Origin: a virus
IMG/VR virus record: IMGVR_UViG_3300032360_000004
Coordinates: 1 to 61,310 of that record
Reading direction: 5' to 3' (one strand)
Length of the DNA stretch: 61,310 bases
A program made the position numbers and the translations under genes. The notes under the pieces are model-generated. The model ran no database searches and was not told where the DNA came from. It saw nothing but the letters and a program-made list of their open reading frames with translations. Each line of letters opens with the position of its first letter. Within the stretch, counting starts at the first letter, position 1. Shown here piece after piece: positions 3,584-58,098 of the stretch.

Positions 3584-4180
3584 ATGGCCAGTACCGGTAT
3601 TAAACCTAGAAAGCGTGGCATTGATCCGGCTAGGCTCAGTGACCAGCAGCTAGTGTTTGTTAATGAACTGGCAGCGGACGGCAACTTCAATGCAAGCGAG
3701 GCAGCCCGTAAGGCAGGCTATAAGCGTCCTGGCACCACAGCGGGTAAACTGCTCAGGCAGCCGAAGATAGCCGCAGCACTGGGCAAGGTGTTATACGACC
3801 GCCTGGAGCGGTGCCGTCTAACTCAGGATGACGTACTGGGCTACCTACAGTCCGCCCTGTTCTTTAACCCACTGCACTACTTCAAGCCTACCGATGATGG
3901 ACATTGGTTGGTGTCTGACCTGGAAAGCCTGCCAGAGGAGGTAGGTATGCTGATAGACACCCTAGAGGTACAGCGGCAGTACGACCGGGACGGTAACCCC
4001 ACTGAGGACATATTTAAGGTGAAGCTGGTTAGTAAGGCCACGGCACTGGGCCTAGCCATGCGGCACGTGGGCGTAGAGAAGCACGAGGTAACGCACACCC
4101 TGGACTGGGACAGTCTAGTGGGCCAAGGCAACACCAAAGCCGTAGACGTTATAGAAGCCCGCATAGCTGAAGGAAACTAG
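3584..4180 (+). CDS. terS: Terminase small subunit
   Basis: The 198-residue protein matches Terminase_2-type small subunits. An N-terminal helix-turn-helix region (LSDQQLVFVNELAADGNF, then NASEAARKAGYKRPGTTAGKLL near residues 17-60) precedes a helical oligomerisation part. This subunit recognises phage DNA and loads the large subunit for packaging. It is followed directly by a small zinc-ribbon protein and the large terminase. In family members the phrase 'F..EYL.D.NAt.AA.rAGYs' is diagnostic and is clearly present here. Confidence 0.9.
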   Translation: MASTGIKPRKRGIDPARLSDQQLVFVNELAADGNFNASEAARKAGYKRPGTTAGKLLRQPKIAAALGKVLYDRLERCRLTQDDVLGYLQSALFFNPLHYFKPTDDGHWLVSDLESLPEEVGMLIDTLEVQRQYDRDGNPTEDIFKVKLVSKATALGLAMRHVGVEKHEVTHTLDWDSLVGQGNTKAVDVIEARIAEGN

Positions 4181-6512: not shown

Positions 6513-8078
6513 ATGCCAACACCAGCACGCAAAACCGCAGGCCAAGCCGTCCGCAATAGTAACGGCAAATCATTAACCAAGGCCCAGGAGCGGTATGAAG
6601 AACGGGAGCTAATTGGCAATGTGCTAATGAGCCGTCGAGACCTTATCAAGGGTTTTCTAGACCCACGTAAGGACATTGACGATGAGTGCGGTTATAAGAA
6701 GACCAACGAGATAACCGGCGACCACTACCGCCTGTTATATGGCCGCGGGGCTGTAGCTGCCCGTGTGGTAGAGGTCATGCCCCAGGAAAGTTGGCAGGTA
6801 CAACCGAGTATATATGAAACGGAAGACGCAGAAGAAACCACCCCGTTCGAACAGGCATGGCAAGACCTGGACAACAACCTACGGGGCGAGAGCTTTTACC
6901 AGGACGAAGAGGGTAGCCCAGTATGGGAACACCTACTACGGGCTGACGTGCTGAGCGGTGTCGGTTCCTATGGAGTGATACTGCTGGGCCTAGATGATGG
7001 ACGTGACCTGTGGCACCCGGTCAAAGCACGTGAGGGGGCTAAGCTGTTGTTCCTGAGGAGCTTTGACTCAGCACTAGTAGCTATTACCCGGTACGAGGAT
7101 GACATACATAGCCCCCGCTTTGGACAGCCGGTGCAATACAGCATCACCTTTAATGATCCCCGTGATAAGAGCCAGAGCGGGGTGGGCCTGCCCCTTTCCA
7201 CCGTTAAGGTACACTGGACCCGTGTGGTACACCTAGCCGACAACCTCGGCAGTAGTGAGGTGTTTGGCGTGCCTCGTATGCAGCCTGTATATAACCGTCT
7301 GGTTGACCTGCGTAAACTGTATGCAGGCAGTGCGGAAATGTACTGGCGTGGTGCCTTTCCTGGCTTTGCTCTAGAGACTCACCCACAACTGGGTGGCGAC
7401 GTCAGCATAGACAAGAGCGTGCTACGTGACGAGATGGAAAACTATATGAATGGGCTACAACGCTACATGGCCTTAATGGGCATGAGTGCCAAGAGCCTAG
7501 CCCCACAGGTGGTGGACCCAAGCCCACAGATTAATATCCAGCTAGACGCTATCTGCATACGGCTGGGTATACCCAAGCGTATATTCGTGGGTAGTGAACG
7601 GGGGGAACTGGCCAGCAGCCAAGACGCCGGTACCTGGAATGGACGCCTGCGGTACCGTCAGCACAACTACATAACACCACGTATTATCGTGCCATTCTGC
7701 GACCGGCTTATACAGGTAGGCGTGCTACCCAAGCCAGCCGGGTACAGCGTGGTGTGGCCAGACCTGGACAGCCTGACTGACGAAGAACAGGCTAACATTG
7801 CCAGCAAGCGTACCGAGGCTATGGTCAAGTACGTGGCTGGTGACGTGGAAGCCCTGATGACACCTATGGACTACCTGACCCGTATCCTGGGTTTAACATC
7901 TGAAGCCGCCATAGATGTACTAGAAAACACTATGGATGCTATATCAGAGGATGACGAGGAACTGCTTTCTGAGCCTGTGCAATCCCCGCCCTATCAGGAA
8001 GATGCTACATATGGGAAAGCCGAAGAAACTAAAGAAGACGACAAAGAAGAAAAAGAAGAAAAAGAAGATAAGTCCTAG
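6513..8078 (+). CDS. Portal protein (DUF1073-like)
   Basis: The 521-residue protein fits phage portals of the DUF1073 type: LLYGRGAVAARVVEVMPQES near residues 73-92, a middle GVGSYGVILLGLDDG, and a C-terminal region with GIPKRIFVGSERGELASSQD and YITPRIIVPFCDRLI. It forms the ring through which DNA enters the capsid. The last about 25 residues are a highly charged Lys/Glu/Asp tail. The DNA coding for that tail is also read in another frame as the poly-Lys start of the next gene. AGGAG precedes the ATG. Confidence 0.88.
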   Translation: MPTPARKTAGQAVRNSNGKSLTKAQERYEERELIGNVLMSRRDLIKGFLDPRKDIDDECGYKKTNEITGDHYRLLYGRGAVAARVVEVMPQESWQVQPSIYETEDAEETTPFEQAWQDLDNNLRGESFYQDEEGSPVWEHLLRADVLSGVGSYGVILLGLDDGRDLWHPVKAREGAKLLFLRSFDSALVAITRYEDDIHSPRFGQPVQYSITFNDPRDKSQSGVGLPLSTVKVHWTRVVHLADNLGSSEVFGVPRMQPVYNRLVDLRKLYAGSAEMYWRGAFPGFALETHPQLGGDVSIDKSVLRDEMENYMNGLQRYMALMGMSAKSLAPQVVDPSPQINIQLDAICIRLGIPKRIFVGSERGELASSQDAGTWNGRLRYRQHNYITPRIIVPFCDRLIQVGVLPKPAGYSVVWPDLDSLTDEEQANIASKRTEAMVKYVAGDVEALMTPMDYLTRILGLTSEAAIDVLENTMDAISEDDEELLSEPVQSPPYQEDATYGKAEETKEDDKEEKEEKEDKS

Positions 8079-8256
8079 TGGCCACCCGCACTATCTGCCC
8101 ACCCCAGAGCAGATAGCTAAGGAGGCTGCTCTAATACGGGCAGAACGTCTAGACGACTCAGCACCCCCTATCCGTATACAGGGCATACCCAACAAACCAC
8201 GTGATCCTAAGCCAACGCACCGGGTGCACATAGGTATCTCCGGGCTAGATTACTAA
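8011..8256 (+). CDS. Hypothetical basic small protein overlapping the portal end
   Basis: The 81-residue protein starts at ATG 8011 with AGGAAG upstream, inside the portal gene and in a different frame. Residues 3-16 are almost all Lys. After this comes LPTPEQIAKEAALIRAERLDD, a short helical motif frequent in small phage proteins of unknown function. The motif beyond the overlap looks protein-like, which supports translation. An in-frame ATG further upstream exists, but the ribosome site favours 8011. Confidence 0.6.
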   Translation: MGKPKKLKKTTKKKKKKKKISPSGHPHYLPTPEQIAKEAALIRAERLDDSAPPIRIQGIPNKPRDPKPTHRVHIGISGLDY

Positions 8257-8277
8257 CCCTTCCAGGGCACACAAACT

Positions 8278-11200
8278 ATGCCAGTTACACAGTGCTACCA
8301 TGAGGGTGCCCCCGGCTACCGCTGGGGGCAGCAGGGTACGTGTTACACGGGCTTGGGGGCCAAGGCTAAGGCAATCAAGCAGGGGCGTGCTGCAAGGGCA
8401 CAGGGGGCCACACAGGGGGCTACACACAACGCCAAACAGTCAACACGCAAGAAGGTAGCCAGCCCCTTACGGGCCGACCCTACCCGTACCACCACGCTCC
8501 GCCGTAGGTTTGAGACCGAAATGCGTAAGCGGTTTAACCGGCTAAAGGCGAAGATAAAACACCTATTAGTTGTGGAGGATGTGTTTGGACTACGGCCCAA
8601 AAACCTTAATCCATTAAGTATTGGCAATACGCTGGGGAGCCCCCGCAATGAGGCAACCATGGGGGTGGCTAACATTGGGCCTCCTGCTAACCACGCCGAG
8701 AGCATCTCGGCCTCCCCAGTATATAACCAGCGGTGGCGGTTCCTAACAGACGACGCCAAGGTGGACCAGTTTGGTCAGTGGCTGGGTACTCAATACCCAG
8801 ACATAGTACCAGGAGAACTAGGCAACGTGGACGACGCATGGTTTACAGCCTACACTGAGGAGGGCTACCGCAAGGGGGCAGGCCGGGCGTTTGACGATGT
8901 GCGTAAACCCATGCTAGCTAGCGGCAATGAGGGGAACATGAGTTGGTTCGCTGGCAGCCGGGATGAGTTTCTAAGACAGAGCTTTGCTCGCCCCGTGGCC
9001 ATAGGCAAAGTTAAGCTATTAGCTGGACGGGTGTTCACAGAGTTAAAGGGTGTGACACAGACTATGAGCCAGCAGCTAACCCGTGAGCTAGCGGACGGGC
9101 TGGTACAGGGTATGAGTCCCCGTGAGATATCCCGTCGCATGGCCAACCGGGTGGACAACCTCACCCGTACCCGTGCCAATGTTATAGCCCGGACAGAAAT
9201 AATACGTGCTCACGGTGAAGGCCAACTAGACGCCCTGGAAACCCTAGGCGTTGACAAGGTGGGCGTTATGGCTGAATGGTCAACCACTGGGGATGACCGG
9301 GTGTGCCAACTATGCCTACCCCTGGAAGGCTCGGTCCTGAGTGTTAAAGAAGCCCGTGGCCTGTTACCCCGTCATCCTAACTGCCGCTGTGCCTACGTAC
9401 CTGCCATGCCTGACTGGCTAGAGAAACCACCTCCCACCCAGCTACGTACCAAGGCCAAGGTAGATAAGGCTTTTGAGAAAAGTATAAGAGGGGAGATCCC
9501 CAAGGGGCAACTCCGTAAACGTAGTCTGGCCCAGCAGAAAGCCCGCAGCCGTTGGCCGGGTGCAGATAGGAAAATACGTAAACGTCCTCGTCGTCGGCCA
9601 GTAGATGTACCCCAACCCGGTGCCCGTGCTGGTGTACCTAAGGAGTGGATGGCTGAACTAACTGAAGCAGAGAAGGCTGAGTTTAAATCATTGGTCAAAG
9701 AGCGAGCCAAACTTAACAAGAGCATAAAGAACCTGGAGGGGAAACTTAGCGACGATGCAAGCAATGTCAGGGCTGCCTATAAGCAGCGGCTTGAAGTGGT
9801 GAAGGGGGACATAAAGGCATACCGTACCCTGATGAAAGAACGGACCGAGGCTAAAGGTATAAAGATCGCCAAGCACCAACCCAAGCCCAAGACTAAGAAA
9901 CCGGCAGCCCCCGAGGCCCACCCAGCTAGCCTAGTAGAGCCACCGGCACCTATTAGAAGCGGCGACATCCTAGATGACATTGCTAACAACCAATACCTGG
10001 ACGACATACAGCGGCAGGTTGTTGCCGCAGGGGATGATCCTTGGATTGAAAAGATGACTAGGGTTTTGGATGACAAGGTAGACGAATCCATAAAGGCTTC
10101 GGACAAGTTATATGACGAGATCCTGGAGGCCAAACAGAAATGGATAAACGCCAACCAGGACGGCATCGTAGGCTTCGAACCTATATACGACGTAGACGGC
10201 AGTAGAGTCCATGACTTTTTTGACACACTAGAGGGTCAGCGGTTTAATAAATTGGCTAGGGAACTGAAGGAAGCCACAACAGCCAACAGGCAGGCATTAC
10301 TAGAGCACCTCACAACAGGTAAGAATAAAGACGTGTACAGGATACTAGAAGTGCTGGAGGAAGACCGAGCACATATAACCTATACACGGGCAAAGACCAC
10401 CCATCACGACCCGTTTGCGGGTGGTAAAACGGTCAGCCACAAAAACAAAACGGATAATCTATTTAGAGCTAAAGCCGATGAAGCTAAGGACTGGCTAACC
10501 AGTCTGACCAGGAGACGGCAACAAGGGCTAAGCCCCGCACAGTTAAAAGAGCTTACCGAACAGATAGGCGACACCAAGAAACTCCTACATGATAACGAAA
10601 TGTGGCTGAAAGCAAAAACTAGGGATTTGGATGAGATGCAAACAATCCTTAGTGATTGGAGGAAAGCAGGAAGCCCATTAGACGATACTGGGCACATACC
10701 TATCACTGGGGAGTTTTCTGCTCAGTCAAACCAGTGGACCGACGCGAAACTTAGGATGAGGATAAAAAAGCTAGAGCTTGATCGAGATGTGTACTTCAAG
10801 GAGGTAGGAGAGACCAGACAGAAAATATGGAAACTAGAGGACGCCCAGAAAATTGCACAGACGGGGGGTAAGGTTGTAGAGTTTGACGGCTTCGACATAC
10901 CGTTGCACCGGCTAAAAACAAAGAAGCGGGCCTTCCAACGGAGCAAGCCTCAGACTACTCAGGGTATTTATTGTAGTGACACCAGCGACGTTAGCACGTT
11001 CATCCACGAGTTTATGCACCGCTACGAGGATGAGATACCGGGACTGCTTAAACAAGCTCAGCAGTTTAAGGATATGCGTATAGCCAGGAGCGGCAAGCCG
11101 GTTGTCAACTTTAAAAAGAAATGGCCGGGTTCCAACTATAAGCCTTATGAGGAGGGTAGTCCAGACGATTTTGAAAAAGTGTATAAGGCTATCGGCCGTA

Positions 11201-35476: not shown

Positions 35477-36508
35477 GTGCAACCGTACCAAGACCTGGAG
35501 CACAAGTACGGCCAGTGGATAGGCAACCCCAACACGGTGGCCTGTGCTACCGGTACGGCTGCCCTGCACTTAGCCCTGGAAGCCTTATGTCTGCCACCGG
35601 GCAGCGAGGTGTTAGTGCCCGAGTTTACCATGGTGGCCTGTGCCCGTGCGGTAACCATGGCCGGGCTGGTGCCTGTGTTTGTAGACTGCGATCCCACCAA
35701 TCTACTGGTAAGCCCCAAAGCCTACAGCCAACATATAGGACCACGCACCAGAGCCATAATGGTGGTCCACATATATGGCCGACAGTGTGACATGGTAGGC
35801 GTGTCCACATTAGCAGCACAGCACAACCTAGCCGTGGTAGAAGACCTAGCCGAAGCCCACGGCATAGCACCCCACCCGGCCAGCACCGCAGCCTGCTGGA
35901 GTTTCTACCGGAACAAAATTATAGCCGGTGAGGAAGGTGGTATGGTGGCCTTTAAGCAACAGGCCCACGCCACCAAGGCACGCCAACTACGGAGCCTGGG
36001 ATTCACCCCCGACCATGACTTCAAACACATACCACGGGGCGTTAATGCCCGACTGAGCAATTGCCACGCCACGCTAATACTAGGAAGCCTAGCCACCGTG
36101 GAAGACAACCTGACCAAGCGAACACAGGTGTGTAACTGGTACGACCAGCTAGTGCCCCCGGCCTACCACCAGCCACCCCGTGCAGTGTGCTGGGTGTACG
36201 ACATATGCCTACCATCGGAAACTAACACCTCGCTCCTGGTCAGCAAGTTAAACACGGCAGGGGTGGCAGCCCGTCTAGGGTTTAAGCCCATGAGTGAGCA
36301 ACCAGAATACGCAGCCCCGGTGCAGCACCTAGCCGCTTACCGGGCCAGCAGGCAGGTGGTGTACCTACCAGTACAGCCACGCCTGGAACAGCCACAAGTA
36401 CGGAAGACCGTACAGGCGTTACTGTCAGCCATTCAGTCCCAGTCCCCGCCCTGCGGCATGGGTCCGCTCGCTCCGGCACGTGCCTGTGGGGTGGGGCTGG
36501 GGCGTTAG
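35477..36508 (+). CDS. DegT/DnrJ/EryC1-family sugar aminotransferase
   Basis: The 343-residue protein starts at GTG 35477, 2 nt after the previous stop. VACATGTAALHLALEALCLP near residue 21-40, EVLVPEFTMVACARAVTMAG, EDLAEAHG and SFYRNKIIAGEEGGMV (PLP-binding Lys) are the family signatures. They transfer an amino group from glutamate to a keto sugar nucleotide, for example in perosamine-type pathways. The C-terminal about 25 residues (PLAPARACGVGLGR) look like readthrough into GC-rich DNA and may not be conserved. Last gene of the glycan operon. Confidence 0.9.
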   Translation: MQPYQDLEHKYGQWIGNPNTVACATGTAALHLALEALCLPPGSEVLVPEFTMVACARAVTMAGLVPVFVDCDPTNLLVSPKAYSQHIGPRTRAIMVVHIYGRQCDMVGVSTLAAQHNLAVVEDLAEAHGIAPHPASTAACWSFYRNKIIAGEEGGMVAFKQQAHATKARQLRSLGFTPDHDFKHIPRGVNARLSNCHATLILGSLATVEDNLTKRTQVCNWYDQLVPPAYHQPPRAVCWVYDICLPSETNTSLLVSKLNTAGVAARLGFKPMSEQPEYAAPVQHLAAYRASRQVVYLPVQPRLEQPQVRKTVQALLSAIQSQSPPCGMGPLAPARACGVGLGR

Positions 36509-37183: not shown

Positions 37184-39013
37184 CTAGCTAACATACACCA
37201 GCACCTTAGCAGCACGAGTGATAGCCACGTAACGCAGGTTCATTTCCTGGTCACGTTGCCATGCACTCTTAGCCATGGGGTGTGGGATACCCGCACCTTC
37301 CGGCTCCAGCAAAAACACCCGGTCGGCTTCTAACCCCTTGGCCTTATGTACACTGCTCAGCATGATGCCGGGAGTGTTTCGGTCGTTAGTAAATATCTGC
37401 TCGATCTTACTAATGACGTCCGCAATACTCTGGGCTTCCTCAGTGAAGCACAGCAGGCAATCGTGCCGGTCTTGCAAAGCAATGAGCCGGGCCGAACTGG
37501 GATTACGCTTAGCGTTTTCCTTTCGTTCTTCTGCGTGCAGCCAGTCAGTCAACCGGCCCACTAGGTTAGGTACGTCAGATGCCTTAAGCCTATTGACGGT
37601 GCTAATGAGACCTTGACCAATGTCCCGTCCCTGGATGTTAGCCTGCACCCCGTCTTTAATAAACCTAAAGCACTCACTGACCAGCGGAGCATTAACACGG
37701 CACAGTACCATGTCGCCACCTGTGGCTATGGTGCGGTAATTACCATCACCCTTATACGCAGCCCGTAGCACGGTGCCAGGACCGTTGTCGGGGTGGGCTT
37801 CAAAGTCTGGTACCAACGCACGGGCCTCTTCCACTATGGCCTTGCCACAACGGCGGGTCACTGTCAGTGGCAAACTAGTGCAGCCCCGGTTAGTCTCGCT
37901 AAGGATCTCTTCCAGGCGGGGTATGCTGTCACTGTCCGCACCGGCAAACCCGTAAATAGCCTGCTTGGGATCACCACACAGTACCAGCCTACTGCCTACC
38001 TTCAGGGCAAGCTGCTGCTGGCAGCGGTTCAGGTCCTGGGCTTCATCAACCAGCAGCAGATCGTACTGGGTGACGGGCAGGTCCAAGGCCACGGGTAGCC
38101 ATATCATGTCGTCGAAGTCTATGCACCCGTCACGGGTCACATCCTTACAACGGTCAAGCACTCGGGGCACAAGGTCAAACACTTCAGCCTCGCTACCATT
38201 AAGCTCCACGTCATAGTGGGCTGCCAGTTGTTGCAACTCATCCTGCATAGTAGTTAGCAGGTTGGTCTGAGTAGCACCCAGTCCCACGAGGTTCATCTTG
38301 CACAGGCTAACCAGCTTGGCAGTGGCCCGGACCATGGACCGTTTCTTCTCATCCCGTCGCAGGGCACGGCTATCCTGGCCCAGCAACTCAGCCACAATAT
38401 CCTGCACCCGGTACTGGTTAACCTTCACCCGGCCACAGGCTTTACCTACAGCCTTAAAGCCCATGCTGTGCATTGTCATAGCTTCACAGCCTGCGGGTAC
38501 CCGCTGCTGCAACTCTGTGGCGATGGACTTATTAAAGGCGACGAAGCAGATGGTGCGGACCTTACCTGCACTCAACTGCATAGCGTCCCACACGGCTGCC
38601 TGCTGGGGGCTGGGGGTTAGGGGGCTGGTGCCACCCTGTACCAGCTTTAACCCTTCCACCAGTGTGGTGGTCTTGCCAGTACCAGCCCGTGCAATAACAA
38701 CCAAGTGCGGTGCCGTGCACCGTATCAACGGCCTGTCCCCACGTAGGACATTGGCCAACCCAATACTGGGCTCCTGGTGTGGCGGGATACCACCAAGCCC
38801 TGTGCCGTCGTTGGCACAGGCGTCGGTGCTGTTGAGGCAGACAAACCTAGCAGCACTACGAAACGTATGTTCCAACCCGGTTACAGGCTCAGTGACAGTG
38901 TACCGGGTACGACCCCGGCTGTTCTGTGTAATAGCGTCCACACGTACGGACGTCTGCTCGCCACCCACTGTGGCCACATATAGTCTTCCCTGTTCAATCT
39001 GTGATTTCCTCAT
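37184..39013 (-). CDS. Superfamily 1 (UvrD/Rep-like) DNA helicase
   Basis: The 609-residue protein shows SF1 motifs: Walker A ARAGTGKTTT near residues 108-117, CFVAFNKSIATELQQRVP (Ia region), DLLLVDEAQDLN near 324-335 (II), LCGDPKQAIYGFAGAD (III), and a C-terminal LSSVHKAKGLEADRVFLLEP (V) with LRYVAITRA (VI). The first 80 residues are a small beta domain not typical of UvrD. It likely unwinds DNA in replication or repair. GGAGCAAGC precedes ATG. The start overlaps the HTH gene by 4 nt. Confidence 0.9.
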   Translation of the reverse strand: MRKSQIEQGRLYVATVGGEQTSVRVDAITQNSRGRTRYTVTEPVTGLEHTFRSAARFVCLNSTDACANDGTGLGGIPPHQEPSIGLANVLRGDRPLIRCTAPHLVVIARAGTGKTTTLVEGLKLVQGGTSPLTPSPQQAAVWDAMQLSAGKVRTICFVAFNKSIATELQQRVPAGCEAMTMHSMGFKAVGKACGRVKVNQYRVQDIVAELLGQDSRALRRDEKKRSMVRATAKLVSLCKMNLVGLGATQTNLLTTMQDELQQLAAHYDVELNGSEAEVFDLVPRVLDRCKDVTRDGCIDFDDMIWLPVALDLPVTQYDLLLVDEAQDLNRCQQQLALKVGSRLVLCGDPKQAIYGFAGADSDSIPRLEEILSETNRGCTSLPLTVTRRCGKAIVEEARALVPDFEAHPDNGPGTVLRAAYKGDGNYRTIATGGDMVLCRVNAPLVSECFRFIKDGVQANIQGRDIGQGLISTVNRLKASDVPNLVGRLTDWLHAEERKENAKRNPSSARLIALQDRHDCLLCFTEEAQSIADVISKIEQIFTNDRNTPGIMLSSVHKAKGLEADRVFLLEPEGAGIPHPMAKSAWQRDQEMNLRYVAITRAAKVLVYVS

Positions 39014-39243
39014 CGTGCTTGCTCCTTAGTGTTGGGCCTCTTACGGCCACGGGGATAGCCCTTGGGCTGTGGTGTGTCGCGGTATAGTTCCGCGTCATGT
39101 AGTGCAATGGTGTAGCGGTAGCCGTGCTGGTTATTACGAGTAGGTACCCGTCGTGCCCGCAACCGGCCCACACGTATAAGGGTGCGGACCTGTTGCGGAC
39201 TACAGCCTATAACCTTGGCTGCCTGAGCAGGGGTTAATACCAT
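39010..39243 (-). CDS. Excisionase/MerR-like helix-turn-helix protein
   Basis: The 77-residue protein contains LTPAQAAKVIGCSPQQVRTL and IRVGRLRARRVPTRNNQHGY, the winged HTH of excisionase/MerR type ('lt..eaA..lgvs..tvr.li..G.l.a.r'). The rest is basic. No integrase is present, so a role as regulator is more likely than excision. It overlaps the helicase start, so the two are co-translated. Confidence 0.8.
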   Translation of the reverse strand: MVLTPAQAAKVIGCSPQQVRTLIRVGRLRARRVPTRNNQHGYRYTIALHDAELYRDTPQPKGYPRGRKRPNTKEQAR

Positions 39244-39250
39244 GGCGTCC

Positions 39251-40792
39251 TCACTTCTTGTAGCAGGAAAGTAGTTCAGGTAGGTGGCCCAACAACAGGC
39301 CAGCCATGTCAGTCAGCTTGTTGGCGTAGTTCTCGTCATGGTCCAGGTAGCCCATGCCATGCACCAACTCATGTACAGCGGTTATAGCCAACTGGTGCAG
39401 GTCACCCCTTGCCCGGTTGGGACTGTAGTTATAACGGCGAGTATACTTGCCGTCCGCAATGTTAACCGGGTTGAGGTAGTACACCTTGCCGTGCTTCTCA
39501 GTACATTCGTACTGAGCCAGCACGTCGTCATCGCTGAATATAAAGCCCACTGTAAACTGGTCATCCCAGCCGTACACCTCATGCAGCTTGACCAGCAGCT
39601 TGGTCCAGATGGTCATGATGCGGTAGGCATACTTGCAGAAGTCCGGGCTATCCGGCCTGTACTGCTTTTTAACCTTGTAGCCAGTTTCATTCTTAATGAC
39701 GAAGGCACTGGCCAACACGTACACACCGGCATCCACCATCTGCTGGTGTTGCTCGGGGGTTGGCTGGCTGCCGTCCAGGTTAAACTTTATCTGGCCGTAG
39801 TGCTGCTCCACCACTGGCCGGTTATCATACTGGCCAGTGTCGCCACTGGTAACTACGTCACCAAGACTAGGACCACCCTCTTCCGCAGGGCGTGCCGTCA
39901 CGGTCTTAGCTGCCGTGGTCTTGGCTGCGTGCTTGGCTGCCTGTGCAGCGAAGCCAGTGCAGGCCACCTTATCGCCCTCGTACCGCAGGTACTCTATGGG
40001 CTTAGGCTTCAGTGCCTTACGCTTGTTGGTAATCAGGTCAGTTAGAAACTCATCCAACTGGGCCTGTTGCTGCCAACGCAAGCCGTCCCGGTTGGACATC
40101 AGCACGTCGCTGCTAATACCTTCCAGTTCTACCACCACACACCCGTCGTACTTGGTGGTCTGCGTGAACATGGGCGTACCACCAATCCTCACAACCAGTA
40201 ACCGGCTGGCCTGCTTGTTGGTGTACACCCGGCCGAAGGGCAGGTCGCGACGGTAATAGCCCCGTCGCATACCGCCATCCACTTGCTCACCGTTCACAGT
40301 AAACGTGCACCGCACGTTACTAAGACTGATGAACCGCTTAGCCTGTTGTAACAGGTCAGCACCGCATTCCTCAGGTATGGTGATGGTGCTGGTAGTGCCT
40401 TCCAGGCGTGGGGCATTGCGTCGCAACTTGTAGTTAGCCCCGGTACCACTGACTTCCAGCCTACCTGTGTGAATCTTGAAGGCTTCCCAGCAGAAGTACA
40501 GCAGTTCCTTGGCTTTGCCAAAGCCACCCACGCTACCGTCGGCAAAGTCTTTACCACTGGCACCCAGTGCCAGCAGCTTGCCAACCAGAGTATCCTCGGT
40601 CATAGGGCTACCGTTGTTGGCCACTATAACCGTGGTGCAGCCACCACCGGCTTCCCTGATGGTAACGTCCACCTGTTTGCTGCCGCAGTCTATACTGTTC
40701 TGGAAAAACTCACGCAGCAACGCCCACTGCCAGTTACGGTAGTCATTACGGGCCTTGCTAAAAAACTCAGGACTAATAGTTATCTGGGACAT
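39251..40792 (-). CDS. GHKL ATPase (Hsp90/MutL-like) fused to HExxH metallopeptidase-like domain
   Basis: The 513-residue protein has a Bergerat ATP-binding fold at the N terminus: LLREFFQNSIDCGSKQVDVT near residues 25-44 (N box), VANNGSPMTE (G1) and GSVGGFGKAKELL (G2). The C-terminal part has ITAVHELVHGMGYLDHDENY near residue 472-491, with HExxH plus a further His, as in zinc proteases. The middle (about 270-390) is low similarity. This pairing of an ATPase with a peptidase is unusual and suggests ATP-gated proteolysis or a defence/counter-defence function. GGAGCAAGC precedes ATG. The peptidase call is by motif. Confidence 0.82.
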   Translation of the reverse strand: MSQITISPEFFSKARNDYRNWQWALLREFFQNSIDCGSKQVDVTIREAGGGCTTVIVANNGSPMTEDTLVGKLLALGASGKDFADGSVGGFGKAKELLYFCWEAFKIHTGRLEVSGTGANYKLRRNAPRLEGTTSTITIPEECGADLLQQAKRFISLSNVRCTFTVNGEQVDGGMRRGYYRRDLPFGRVYTNKQASRLLVVRIGGTPMFTQTTKYDGCVVVELEGISSDVLMSNRDGLRWQQQAQLDEFLTDLITNKRKALKPKPIEYLRYEGDKVACTGFAAQAAKHAAKTTAAKTVTARPAEEGGPSLGDVVTSGDTGQYDNRPVVEQHYGQIKFNLDGSQPTPEQHQQMVDAGVYVLASAFVIKNETGYKVKKQYRPDSPDFCKYAYRIMTIWTKLLVKLHEVYGWDDQFTVGFIFSDDDVLAQYECTEKHGKVYYLNPVNIADGKYTRRYNYSPNRARGDLHQLAITAVHELVHGMGYLDHDENYANKLTDMAGLLLGHLPELLSCYKK

Positions 40793-46584: not shown

Positions 46585-47142
46585 ATGGCCACACGTTACC
46601 AAGCACACCGTAAGAAATGGATAGACTGTACGGCTTGCCCTTTGCACCAAGGACGAACACAGGTGGTGCTAGCCCGTGGCCACCTACCTGCCGACATACT
46701 GTTTGTGGGTGAGGCTCCTGGTGCTAGTGAAGATGTACTAGGGCGTCCGTTTGTTGGGCCTGCTGGGCACCTGTTAGACAGCATAGTGGACCAAGCCTTG
46801 GACGCAGTACCCGGTATAGGTGTAGCTTTCACCAACCTAGTAGCCTGCATTCCTAAGACTGGGGCAACAACTGCTAAGATTGGCGAACCGCCTGCACAGG
46901 CTATACAGGCGTGCAATCCTAGGCTGCTGGAACTCATTGACCTATGCCACCCCCAGTTAATAGTGGGCGTGGGGGTACTGGCTACCAAGCACCTGGAAGC
47001 ACTAGACTCCTCTATGGTCATGGTTATTAGTATTGTCCACCCGGCTGCCATATTGCGTATGGACATCAGTCAACGGGGGCTAGCAATACAACGGGCCACC
47101 ATAGCTTTGGAAGACGCAGCCACAGAACTAGTCCCATTTTAA
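46585..47142 (+). CDS. Family 4-like uracil-DNA glycosylase
   Basis: The 185-residue protein has the family's active-site block GEAPGASEDVLGRPFVG (residues about 38-54), PAGHLLDSI, and the C-terminal IVHPAAILR. Four Cys at the expected places (CTACPL; VACIPK; QACNPR) would hold the 4Fe-4S cluster. Family 4 enzymes remove uracil from DNA. In a phage that may modify thymine through hydroxymethyluracil, its preference for uracil versus modified uracil is of interest. GGAGCAAGC precedes ATG. Confidence 0.88.
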   Translation: MATRYQAHRKKWIDCTACPLHQGRTQVVLARGHLPADILFVGEAPGASEDVLGRPFVGPAGHLLDSIVDQALDAVPGIGVAFTNLVACIPKTGATTAKIGEPPAQAIQACNPRLLELIDLCHPQLIVGVGVLATKHLEALDSSMVMVISIVHPAAILRMDISQRGLAIQRATIALEDAATELVPF

Positions 47143-56473: not shown

Positions 56474-56923
56474 ATGCCCCCAGAAACTTTGCCCCCAAGC
56501 CAAGAAAAGCCGCCAATCGTGTACCTTGCGGTGCCCTACAGCCATGCGGATCCGCTGGTGATGGAGGCCCGTTACCGGGCTGTCACCCACGCAGCCGGGC
56601 GATTGCTGGCACAGGGACGGCACGTGTTCAGCCCCATCACCCACACCCACCCCATAAAGGTAGCTGCCGGTCAGGTTGACCTGTGGGACTCCTGGGCAGC
56701 GTACGACACTGCCGTCATGACCAACCTGTGTAGCAGCATGGTGGTACTATGCCTAAAGGGGTGGCGTACCAGTACCGGGGTGCGTGCTGAAAGACAACTG
56801 GCTCGATCCCTGGGACTGCCTATCAGCTACCTGCTGCCCCAGCATTGTGGCCTCCGCCCCAGATACCCGTACCAAGACTGGCAGCCGATGATCCCCGATA
56901 TCCCAACCCGTCCCAACGCCTAA
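56474..56923 (+). CDS. DUF1937 / nucleoside 2-deoxyribosyltransferase-like protein
   Basis: The 149-residue protein begins at ATG 56474 with TGGAG upstream. IVYLAVPYSHADPLVMEARY near residues 15-34 and GRHVFSPITHTHPIKVAA near 48-65, then WDSWAAYDTAVMTNLCSSMV near 74-93, follow the fold of deoxyribosyltransferases and DNPH1-type N-hydrolases ('vylA.Pys....v...R...v......L...G..vfsPi..'). Such enzymes cut or exchange the base of deoxynucleotides. In this context it may clear or recycle hydroxymethyl-dUMP or dNMPs. It precedes the hydroxymethylase gene by 41 nt. Confidence 0.75.
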   Translation: MPPETLPPSQEKPPIVYLAVPYSHADPLVMEARYRAVTHAAGRLLAQGRHVFSPITHTHPIKVAAGQVDLWDSWAAYDTAVMTNLCSSMVVLCLKGWRTSTGVRAERQLARSLGLPISYLLPQHCGLRPRYPYQDWQPMIPDIPTRPNA

Positions 56924-56964
56924 AACCAGTATCCCAACCGTCCCAGCCCGTCCCAAGGTATTCC

Positions 56965-58098
56965 ATGCACTACCAGTACCGTAATGTAAATGATGCGTTT
57001 GTTGGGCTTGTCCAGGCTATTCACACTGGGGAACTGCCCACGGTGGTGACACCCAGCCGGGCCGGTGAAGTCATGATGGTACCCCACCCGGTGCTGGTCA
57101 GTTACACCCACCCACTGGAGCGGGTGCTGCTGCACACAGGCCGGGACGCTAACCCGTTCTTCCACCTCTTTGAAAGTCTGTGGATGTTGGCCGGGTGCAA
57201 CACCGTGGCTCCACTGCTGTACTACAACAGCCGCATAGCAGCCATTGCCAGCGATGACGGCAAGACGTTTAACGGTGCCTACGGTTACCGCTGGCGACAC
57301 CCCGTGGACCAGCTAGCCGTTATCATTGAACACCTACGGGCCACGCCTGGAAGCCGTCGTGCCGTATTGCAAATGTGGAACACGCAGGATGACCTACTGC
57401 GGGTGGATGATACTAAAGACGTGTGCTGCAACACGCACGTGTACTTTAGCGTGGAACAGGGCACGTGTCCTGACTGCAACGGCACTGGCTATAACAGTGT
57501 GTGGAGCTTGGGCACCCAAGGACCAGAGCCTTGCACACGGTGCAACGGCTTACCCCACGACCAACCCACCTACCTGAACATGACCGTATGCAATAGGAGC
57601 AACGATCTGCTGTGGGGTTTGCTGGGTGCCAACGTGGTCCACTTCAGTGTGCTGCAAGAATACGTAGCCCTGAGCCTGGGATTACAGGTTGGCACCTACT
57701 ACCAGTTTACTAACAACCTGCACGTGTACACCGAAAGGTGGACCCCGGAAAAGTGGTCTGCCTTTGAGCGGTCCAAAGGGCAGGCACCTTACGCACTTCC
57801 ACAGGCCAAGCGTGTACCGTTGGTAGAGCAGCCGGACAGGTTCAATGCAGAGTGTAAGCAGTTTGTGGACGGGCCACTCATACCGCCAACCCTTGTAGGA
57901 GAGGGGCGGTTTAACTGGAAGGAGCCGTTCTTACAACACGTGGCTGCTCCCATGTGTTGGGCCTACCGTCTATACAAGCAACGGGAATACGCCCTAGCTT
58001 TAAGAACTGTGGACGAGGTGTGGGACCGTGACTGGCGGACTGCCGCTACCAACTGGATACAAAAACGGCAGGCCCGGTATCTGGATAAGTCATCATAA
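56965..58098 (+). CDS. Thymidylate-synthase-family nucleotide hydroxymethylase with zinc-ribbon insertion
   Basis: The 377-residue protein matches the thymidylate synthase fold: FHLFESLWMLAGCNTVAPLL near residue 68-87, FNGAYGYRWRHPVDQLAVII near 98-117, LQMWNTQDDL, the nucleophile block DVCCNTHVYFSV (Cys155), then LNMTVCNRSNDLLWGLLGAN, and YYQFTNNLHVY. The CNTH form instead of PCH is typical of phage deoxynucleotide hydroxymethylases. Between them residues 168-193 hold CPDC and CTRC pairs, a DnaJ-like zinc insertion. It is therefore probably a dUMP (or dCMP) hydroxymethylase; dUMP fits the neighbouring hmdU genes. ATG 56965 was chosen over an upstream start that overlaps the previous gene. Confidence 0.85.
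   Translation: MHYQYRNVNDAFVGLVQAIHTGELPTVVTPSRAGEVMMVPHPVLVSYTHPLERVLLHTGRDANPFFHLFESLWMLAGCNTVAPLLYYNSRIAAIASDDGKTFNGAYGYRWRHPVDQLAVIIEHLRATPGSRRAVLQMWNTQDDLLRVDDTKDVCCNTHVYFSVEQGTCPDCNGTGYNSVWSLGTQGPEPCTRCNGLPHDQPTYLNMTVCNRSNDLLWGLLGANVVHFSVLQEYVALSLGLQVGTYYQFTNNLHVYTERWTPEKWSAFERSKGQAPYALPQAKRVPLVEQPDRFNAECKQFVDGPLIPPTLVGEGRFNWKEPFLQHVAAPMCWAYRLYKQREYALALRTVDEVWDRDWRTAATNWIQKRQARYLDKSS

What the first reader, a model, noticed from the sequence alone, without database searches (positions are those of the whole stretch)
39251..40792. GHKL ATPase fused to a metallopeptidase-like domain
An Hsp90/MutL-type ATP-binding fold and HELVHGMGYLDHDENY zinc-protease signature are in one phage protein. 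Such joining is rare and resembles effector or defence designs, where ATP or nucleotide sensing controls proteolysis.
Basis: partly seen in the sequence, partly recalled or inferred. Interest (0 to 1): 0.7.

Follow-up and report, generated by a model that had tools for sequence, protein, structure and literature searches.

The report
Phage ATPase fused to Wss1-like protease
A phage gene encodes one protein that joins an Hsp90/MORC-type ATP-driven module to a small zinc protease resembling the yeast enzyme that digests proteins stuck to DNA, and this undescribed combination recurs across many uncultured phages.

Summary
The fusion is real. ORF 39251-40792 (-) of this 61-kb siphovirus-like contig encodes 513 aa. 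Residues 1-264 fold as a GHKL ATPase plus transducer (best solved matches MORC4, MORC2, TRAP1). Residues ~346-513 fold as a compact zincin whose best solved match is the DNA-protein-crosslink protease Wss1 (Z 10.4, 121-124 aligned, 3.0-3.1 A). H474, E475, H478 and a third ligand H485 are invariant in 31 of 31 aligned relatives, so chance HExxH is refuted. The family lies in metagenomic phages and six megaplasmids, is rare in the bacterial genomes sampled, gave no hit in 50,697 named phage records, and no covering PHROG or paper was found. A defence-island origin is not supported. Best reading, inferred only: a nucleotide-gated clamp that cleaves proteins bound to DNA, with the ATPase in cis where Wss1 uses Cdc48 in trans. 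An rIIA-like counter-defence protease is the main rival. One caution: in the window's six-member clade the Asp that contacts adenine in other GHKL proteins is Asn (0 of 25 others), so ATP use in this clade is uncertain.

The parts
39251..40792 (-). GHKL ATPase - zincin fusion gene, 513 aa
40001..40792 (-). residues 1-264: GHKL ATP-binding domain plus S5-like transducer domain
   Evidence: VIA-align MORC4 7k7t_B Z 17.4, model range 1-260; MORC2 1-264; TRAP1 4-259
40688..40714 (-). N-box REFFQNSID, residues 27-35 (R27, E28, Q31, N32, D35 invariant)
   Evidence: 31 of 31 rows
40601..40618 (-). G1 box NNGSPM, residues 59-64; N59 replaces the usual Asp
   Evidence: N in 6 of 6 of the window clade, D in 25 of 25 other rows; P63 likewise only in the 6
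40517..40528 (-). G2 box GGFG, residues 89-92
   Evidence: G89, F91, G92 invariant
40088..40090 (-). Arg235 of SNRD, candidate gamma-phosphate-contacting residue of the transducer domain
   Evidence: invariant 31 of 31; role inferred from Hsp90/MutL (recalled)
39758..40000 (-). residues 265-345: linker, largely disordered (pLDDT under 50 at 291-344)
39254..39757 (-). residues 346-513: Wss1/minigluzincin-like zinc protease domain
   Evidence: AF2 of residues 343-513 pLDDT 85.4, pTM 0.82; Wss1 Z 10.4
39359..39373 (-). HELVH, residues 474-478: two zinc His and catalytic Glu
   Evidence: 36 of 36 rows
39338..39340 (-). His485, third zinc ligand
   Evidence: invariant; aligned with the third His of proabylysin and Wss1
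39010..39243 (-). 77-aa HTH_17/excisionase-like gene, 7 nt downstream
37184..39013 (-). 609-aa UvrD-like helicase gene, overlaps the HTH gene by 4 nt; same candidate operon
   Evidence: in L008 the homologous helicase directly follows the fusion gene

Best explanation
It is a nucleotide-switched zinc protease of phages that most likely acts on proteins bound to DNA. Shown or strongly supported: (1) a GHKL plus transducer module of the MORC/Hsp90/MutL type, (2) a complete zinc site in a Wss1-like minigluzincin fold, (3) both halves kept together over great divergence. Inferred from MORC, MutL and Hsp90: (4) nucleotide binding closes the N-terminal halves of a dimer into a clamp. Inferred from Wss1 and Spartan: (5) the tethered protease has little sequence specificity and cuts what the clamp holds, such as proteins crosslinked to or blocking the phage DNA, or host proteins seated on it. 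In yeast and animals the protease works with a separate ATPase (Cdc48/p97); here an unrelated ATPase is built in.
For: Wss1 tops the C-domain comparison (5xbv, 5xbn Z 10.4; SpWss1 9.1), above 1oz9 (AQ_1354) 8.4, selecase 7.7, Spartan 7.3. The C-domain profile finds proabylysin (E 0.0012), SpWss1 (0.0025), ScWss1 (0.005) and Spartan (0.25) by sequence, zinc ligands aligned. Pfam WLM matches 11 of 36 relatives, best E 8e-5. The N-half matches MORC ATPases, tied with TRAP1. In the window the gene lies in a tight cluster with a UvrD-like helicase; in the closest relative L008 the homologous helicase (34% identical) overlaps it by 11 nt, although only 3 of 17 L008 ORFs match the window, and a SNF2-type helicase and a UDG lie nearby. 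Wss1/SPRTN depend on DNA binding and interact with Cdc48/p97 (PMC4559962, PMC7782752, passages).
Against: No DNA binding, ATPase, dimer or protease activity was tested. MORC and Hsp90 matches are tied, so the fold does not choose DNA over protein clients. The MORC-specific motif given in PMC2292703 is absent from 31 of 31 rows. The helicase was found in 1 of the 5 other clade records searched. Foldseek alone found no C-domain match at E <= 0.001. N59 may mean that this clade binds ATP poorly or another nucleotide. Linker and C-domain are not notably basic.
Confidence: 0.4

Rival explanations
1. rIIA-like counter-defence protein: the GHKL module senses or binds a host factor and the zincin destroys a host defence protein, a catalytic version of the T4 rIIA plan (GHKL plus variable C-terminus).
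For: Among viral models many of the N-half's nearest neighbours are RIIA proteins. [quoted passage not shown] The family is patchy, without conserved neighbours.
Against: The C-domain is not variable: its zinc site is kept throughout, and N- and C-half distances correlate (Mantel r 0.757, 0 of 2000 permutations). RIIA PHROGs match few members, and where positions were seen, the ATP-binding part only.
Confidence: 0.3
2. Chaperone-protease: an Hsp90/sacsin-like clamp that captures misfolded or precursor proteins and trims them, for quality control or virion maturation.
For: TRAP1 ties with MORC; NCBIfam sacsin ATP-binding-like domain E 4e-7, under its cut-off; Pfam SACS matches 7 of 17.
Against: No Hsp90 C-terminal dimerisation domain; not next to head genes in the window.
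Confidence: 0.13
3. Phage- or plasmid-borne defence or superinfection exclusion, like single-gene HATPase defence proteins (Tiamat TmtA, name recalled).
For: PADLOC TmtA weak match E 2e-5, ATP-binding part only; present on six megaplasmids.
Against: Near absence from sampled bacterial genomes; mostly in phages.
Confidence: 0.1
4. Chance HExxH or dead enzyme.
For: Window G1 box deviates (N59, P63).
Against: Zinc ligands and catalytic Glu invariant in 36 of 36 rows; fold match to Wss1.
Confidence: 0.04

Closest known systems
Wss1 (WLM domain protease, DNA-protein-crosslink repair) and Spartan/SPRTN
   Same: Minigluzincin fold, HExxH plus third His in the next loop, then F/Y; Wss1 is the best solved match of the C-domain
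   Different: Fused to a GHKL ATPase; window C-domain itself gets no Pfam WLM hit at E <= 1; no tested DNA dependence
MORC ATPases / MutL
   Same: GHKL plus S5-like module, best Z 17.4
   Different: Lacks the MORC motif of PMC2292703; a protease domain follows the ATPase module
Hsp90/TRAP1, sacsin
   Same: N-terminal plus first transducer fold (TRAP1 Z 16.7)
   Different: No Hsp90 C-terminal domain; 513 aa; protease C-terminus
T4-type RIIA
   Same: N-terminal GHKL fold in a phage protein
   Different: C-domain is a conserved zincin; RIIA PHROGs hit only a few members
FtsH and other AAA+ proteases
   Same: ATPase and (FtsH) zinc protease in one chain (recalled)
   Different: ATPase fold is GHKL, not AAA+; no pore-type unfoldase

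Membership tests
GHKL ATPases | N-box with catalytic Glu and Mg-binding Asn | tested here: met
   E28, N32 invariant 31 of 31
GHKL ATPases | G1 box DxGxG with adenine-contacting Asp | tested here: not met
   Window NNGSPM; 6 of 31 rows N, 25 of 31 D. The family as a whole meets it, the window clade does not
GHKL ATPases | Fold with transducer domain and basic residue | tested here: met
   R235 invariant
MORC | GhXhhpXXRhl motif (PMC2292703) | tested here: not met
   0 of 31 rows
Hsp90 | C-terminal dimerisation domain | tested here: not met
   Residues 346-513 are a zincin
RIIA | Whole-length match to RIIA families | tested here: not met
   No RIIA PHROG hit for the window at E <= 0.1; 3 of 17 relatives match phrog_612; in L028, where the position was seen, residues 41-121 only
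Zincin / minigluzincin fold | HExxH with third His ligand in the fold | tested here: met
WLM (Wss1) family | Pfam WLM score above cut-off | tested here: not met
   Window: no hit at E <= 1; 11 of 36 relatives hit, best 8e-5
WLM (Wss1) family | DNA-dependent proteolysis | not testable with these tools
   needs purified protein
SprT/Spartan | SprT-like domain | tested here: inconclusive
   Spartan Z 7.3; 2 of 36 relatives match Pfam SprT-like
Tiamat (TmtA) defence | Whole-length TmtA match | tested here: not met
   Residues 26-92 only

The most novel reading that the evidence does not exclude
A new class of nucleotide-driven protease outside AAA+: a GHKL clamp that encloses DNA or a client and carries a Wss1-like protease in cis, used by phages to strip proteins off their DNA; the window's clade has switched its nucleotide, or lost it, through a D-to-N change.
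Probability: 0.25. Interest if true: 0.85.

Novelty: new variant of a known kind. Interest (0 to 1): 0.62.

Why it matters
ATP-dependent proteases known to me are AAA+ machines (recalled). A GHKL-powered zinc protease would be a different design, and it would place a Wss1-like protease, studied in eukaryotes as a DNA-protein-crosslink repair enzyme, in phages together with its ATPase. It gives a single polypeptide in which to test whether GHKL clamp closure gates proteolysis.

Tried and rejected
Chance HExxH: rejected. Bacterial defence island: not supported. Conserved partner gene: apart from the fusion family itself no protein cluster occurs in more than 4 of the 41 loci compared; the helicase link holds for window and L008 only. 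A zincin gene beside zincin-less GHKL genes (a split version of the fusion): none in 10 of 10 such loci. PHROG covering the whole family: none found; phrog_6203 and phrog_6077 match only the ATP-binding part. tblastn in named phages: no hit with the full window protein, a C-terminal query, or relatives L012, L018, L017; the helicase control found 350 records. Scan of genome contigs: 1 locus; this pattern scan has limited reach. Foldseek on the C-domain gave nothing at E <= 0.001; the Wss1 match comes from the VIA re-alignment of its candidates. Paper searches found no description of the fusion; most subscription journals and all preprints are missing from that library.

Rows dropped: loci whose match covered only the ATP-binding part and that lack HExxH (L044, L045, L046, L048, L049, L063-L067: 10 of the 34 loci) were left out of A7 and A8; they are taken to be other GHKL proteins. 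L055, L056, L060, L043, L047, L070 are in A8 but not A7; L062 (HELTH, no third His found by the pattern) and L027 (HExxH and third His present) are in neither. L047's third His may be misaligned in A8. L021 and L023 were taken as covered by L022, which is in A7; they were not translated past their TAG. The six plasmid proteins are in A1, not in A7 or A8.

Full report
What is there. The ORF 39251-40792 on the minus strand encodes 513 aa. The window is a whole IMG/VR virus record of 61,310 bases with terminase, portal, minor head and tape-measure genes and a DNA polymerase, Sak4-like protein, exonuclease, thymidylate synthase and primase: a siphovirus-like tailed phage, not a jumbo phage.

Relatives. 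Direct searches found nothing in named phages or in IMG/VR with the single protein, but six megaplasmids of Bosea, Pseudomonas, Methylorubrum and Rhizobium encode relatives, annotated only 'ATP-binding protein' in the two Bosea records and 'hypothetical protein' in Pseudomonas FeN3W; the other three carry no annotation there. An alignment of these with the window protein (A1) opened the family: 20 viral loci, more with four smaller alignments, and Methylobacterium hispanicum. The five nearest viral relatives lie on contigs of 42 to 408 kb.

The zinc site. Among the 21 loci, 18 encode HExxH plus a third His; the other three (L021-L023) are cut by an in-frame stop, and L022 read with TAG as Gln has it too. 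Among the 34 loci (L008 counted again), 22 have the full pattern, 2 have HExxH only, and 10 have none; those 10 match only over part of the ATP-binding region. In alignment A7 (31 rows) 19 columns are invariant, among them R27, E28, Q31, N32, D35, G61, M64, K81, G89, F91, G92, R235, H474, E475, H478 and H485.

Structure. AlphaFold2 with A7 gave pLDDT 79.6, pTM 0.64; the low-confidence stretches are 80-88 (where GHKL proteins have their ATP lid, recalled), 291-344 (linker) and 448-461. VIA-align places residues 1-264 on MORC4 (Z 17.4, 245 residues, 3.3 A), MORC2 (17.2) and TRAP1 (16.7), which are tied. Among the viral models nearest to the N-half many are RIIA. The C-domain alone (residues 343-513, 36-row alignment A8) gave pLDDT 85.4, pTM 0.82. 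Its best solved matches are Wss1 of budding yeast (Z 10.4, 121 and 124 residues, 3.0-3.1 A) and fission yeast (9.1), then AQ_1354 (8.4), selecase (7.7) and Spartan (7.3). Foldseek itself reported no match at E <= 0.001. By sequence, the profile of A8 finds proabylysin, both Wss1 proteins and, weakly, Spartan, with HExxH and the third His aligned. In ScWss1 the zinc ligands are His115, His119 and His125 with catalytic Glu116 (PMC5557861, passages).

One protein, not two neighbours. N-half and C-half pairwise distances correlate over the 31 rows (Mantel r 0.757; 0 of 2000 permutations as high). Eight virus records searched with the C-domain profile, the window included, each hold one copy, at the place of the fusion gene. 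This points to an old fusion inherited as a unit.

A deviation in the window's clade. At the position of the adenine-contacting Asp (role recalled from MutL, GyrB and Hsp90) the window and its five nearest relatives (L008, L009, L029, L010, L011) have Asn, the other 25 rows Asp; Pro63 is also confined to these six. The six form one clade, support 100/98. The rest of the ATP site is intact. This clade may bind ATP weakly, bind another nucleotide, or use binding without turnover; none of these is tested. In 5 of 6 members a Cys lies near the C-terminus; Wss1 has a cysteine switch (PMC4559962, abstract and passages), so a similar latency device is conceivable but is speculation.

Surroundings. 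The fusion gene is followed after 7 nt by a 77-aa HTH_17/excisionase-like gene and, overlapping that by 4 nt, by a 609-aa UvrD-like helicase. In L008, 48% identical, the next gene overlaps by 11 nt and is the homologous helicase (34%); only 3 of 17 L008 ORFs match the window at all, and L008 also has a SNF2-type helicase and a UDG nearby. Against this, the helicase was found in 1 of 5 other clade records searched, that of L008, and no neighbour family recurs in more than 4 of 41 loci. So a DNA-related setting is suggested in two phages, not a fixed partnership.

Host side. The profile found 1 of 385 Alphaproteobacteria genomes and 1 of 398 Pseudomonadota genomes, each time the seed genome G001. 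The gene is carried by phages and a few megaplasmids; in this sample it is not a common chromosomal defence gene.

Interpretation. Shown: the architecture and the complete set of zinc-site residues. Strongly supported by predicted fold: GHKL plus transducer, Wss1-like protease. Inferred: nucleotide-driven clamp closure and cleavage of DNA-bound proteins. [quoted passage not shown] The fold evidence does not separate DNA clamps (MORC) from protein clamps (Hsp90), and the rIIA-like counter-defence reading (PMC7824862, passages) remains close behind.

What is in print. Ten searches of the open-access library gave no description of a GHKL-zincin fusion. The jumbo-phage survey PMC7824862 (passages) reports SprT-like and ArdC-like peptidases and rIIA GHKL proteins separately; PMC12363180 (passages) reports an SprT-like protein in mycobacteriophages; PMC2292703 and PMC5512222 (term searches only) gave no such fusion. 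Other papers named in listings were not read.

Noticed in passing
L021-L023, about 7992-9500: Homologues interrupted by an in-frame stop; in L022 it is a TAG, and with TAG as Gln it reads as one 503-aa protein, suggesting TAG-recoded phages.
   Followed up: partly
window 39263-39265 (C510): Cys near the C-terminus in 5 of 6 members of the window clade, reminiscent of the Wss1 cysteine switch.
   Followed up: no
L018 10412-12229, L054 4981-5733, L053 3853-5298: Homologous neighbouring genes near the fusion gene, with DUF5661 detected in L018 and L054 (the L053 gene was not scanned); L020's long protein shares a 56-aa stretch with the L018 gene.
   Followed up: no
L062 3607-10182: 2192-aa virus protein with a GHKL-like stretch and HELTH.
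   Followed up: no
window 3584-4180 (+): ORF with HEVTH just before the terminase gene.
   Followed up: no
window 46585-47142 (+): Uracil-DNA-glycosylase superfamily protein, also present in L008; a thymidylate synthase lies at 56845-58098.
   Followed up: no
window 35477-36508 (+): Aminotransferase-like gene at the end of the plus-strand block that holds the structural genes.
   Followed up: no
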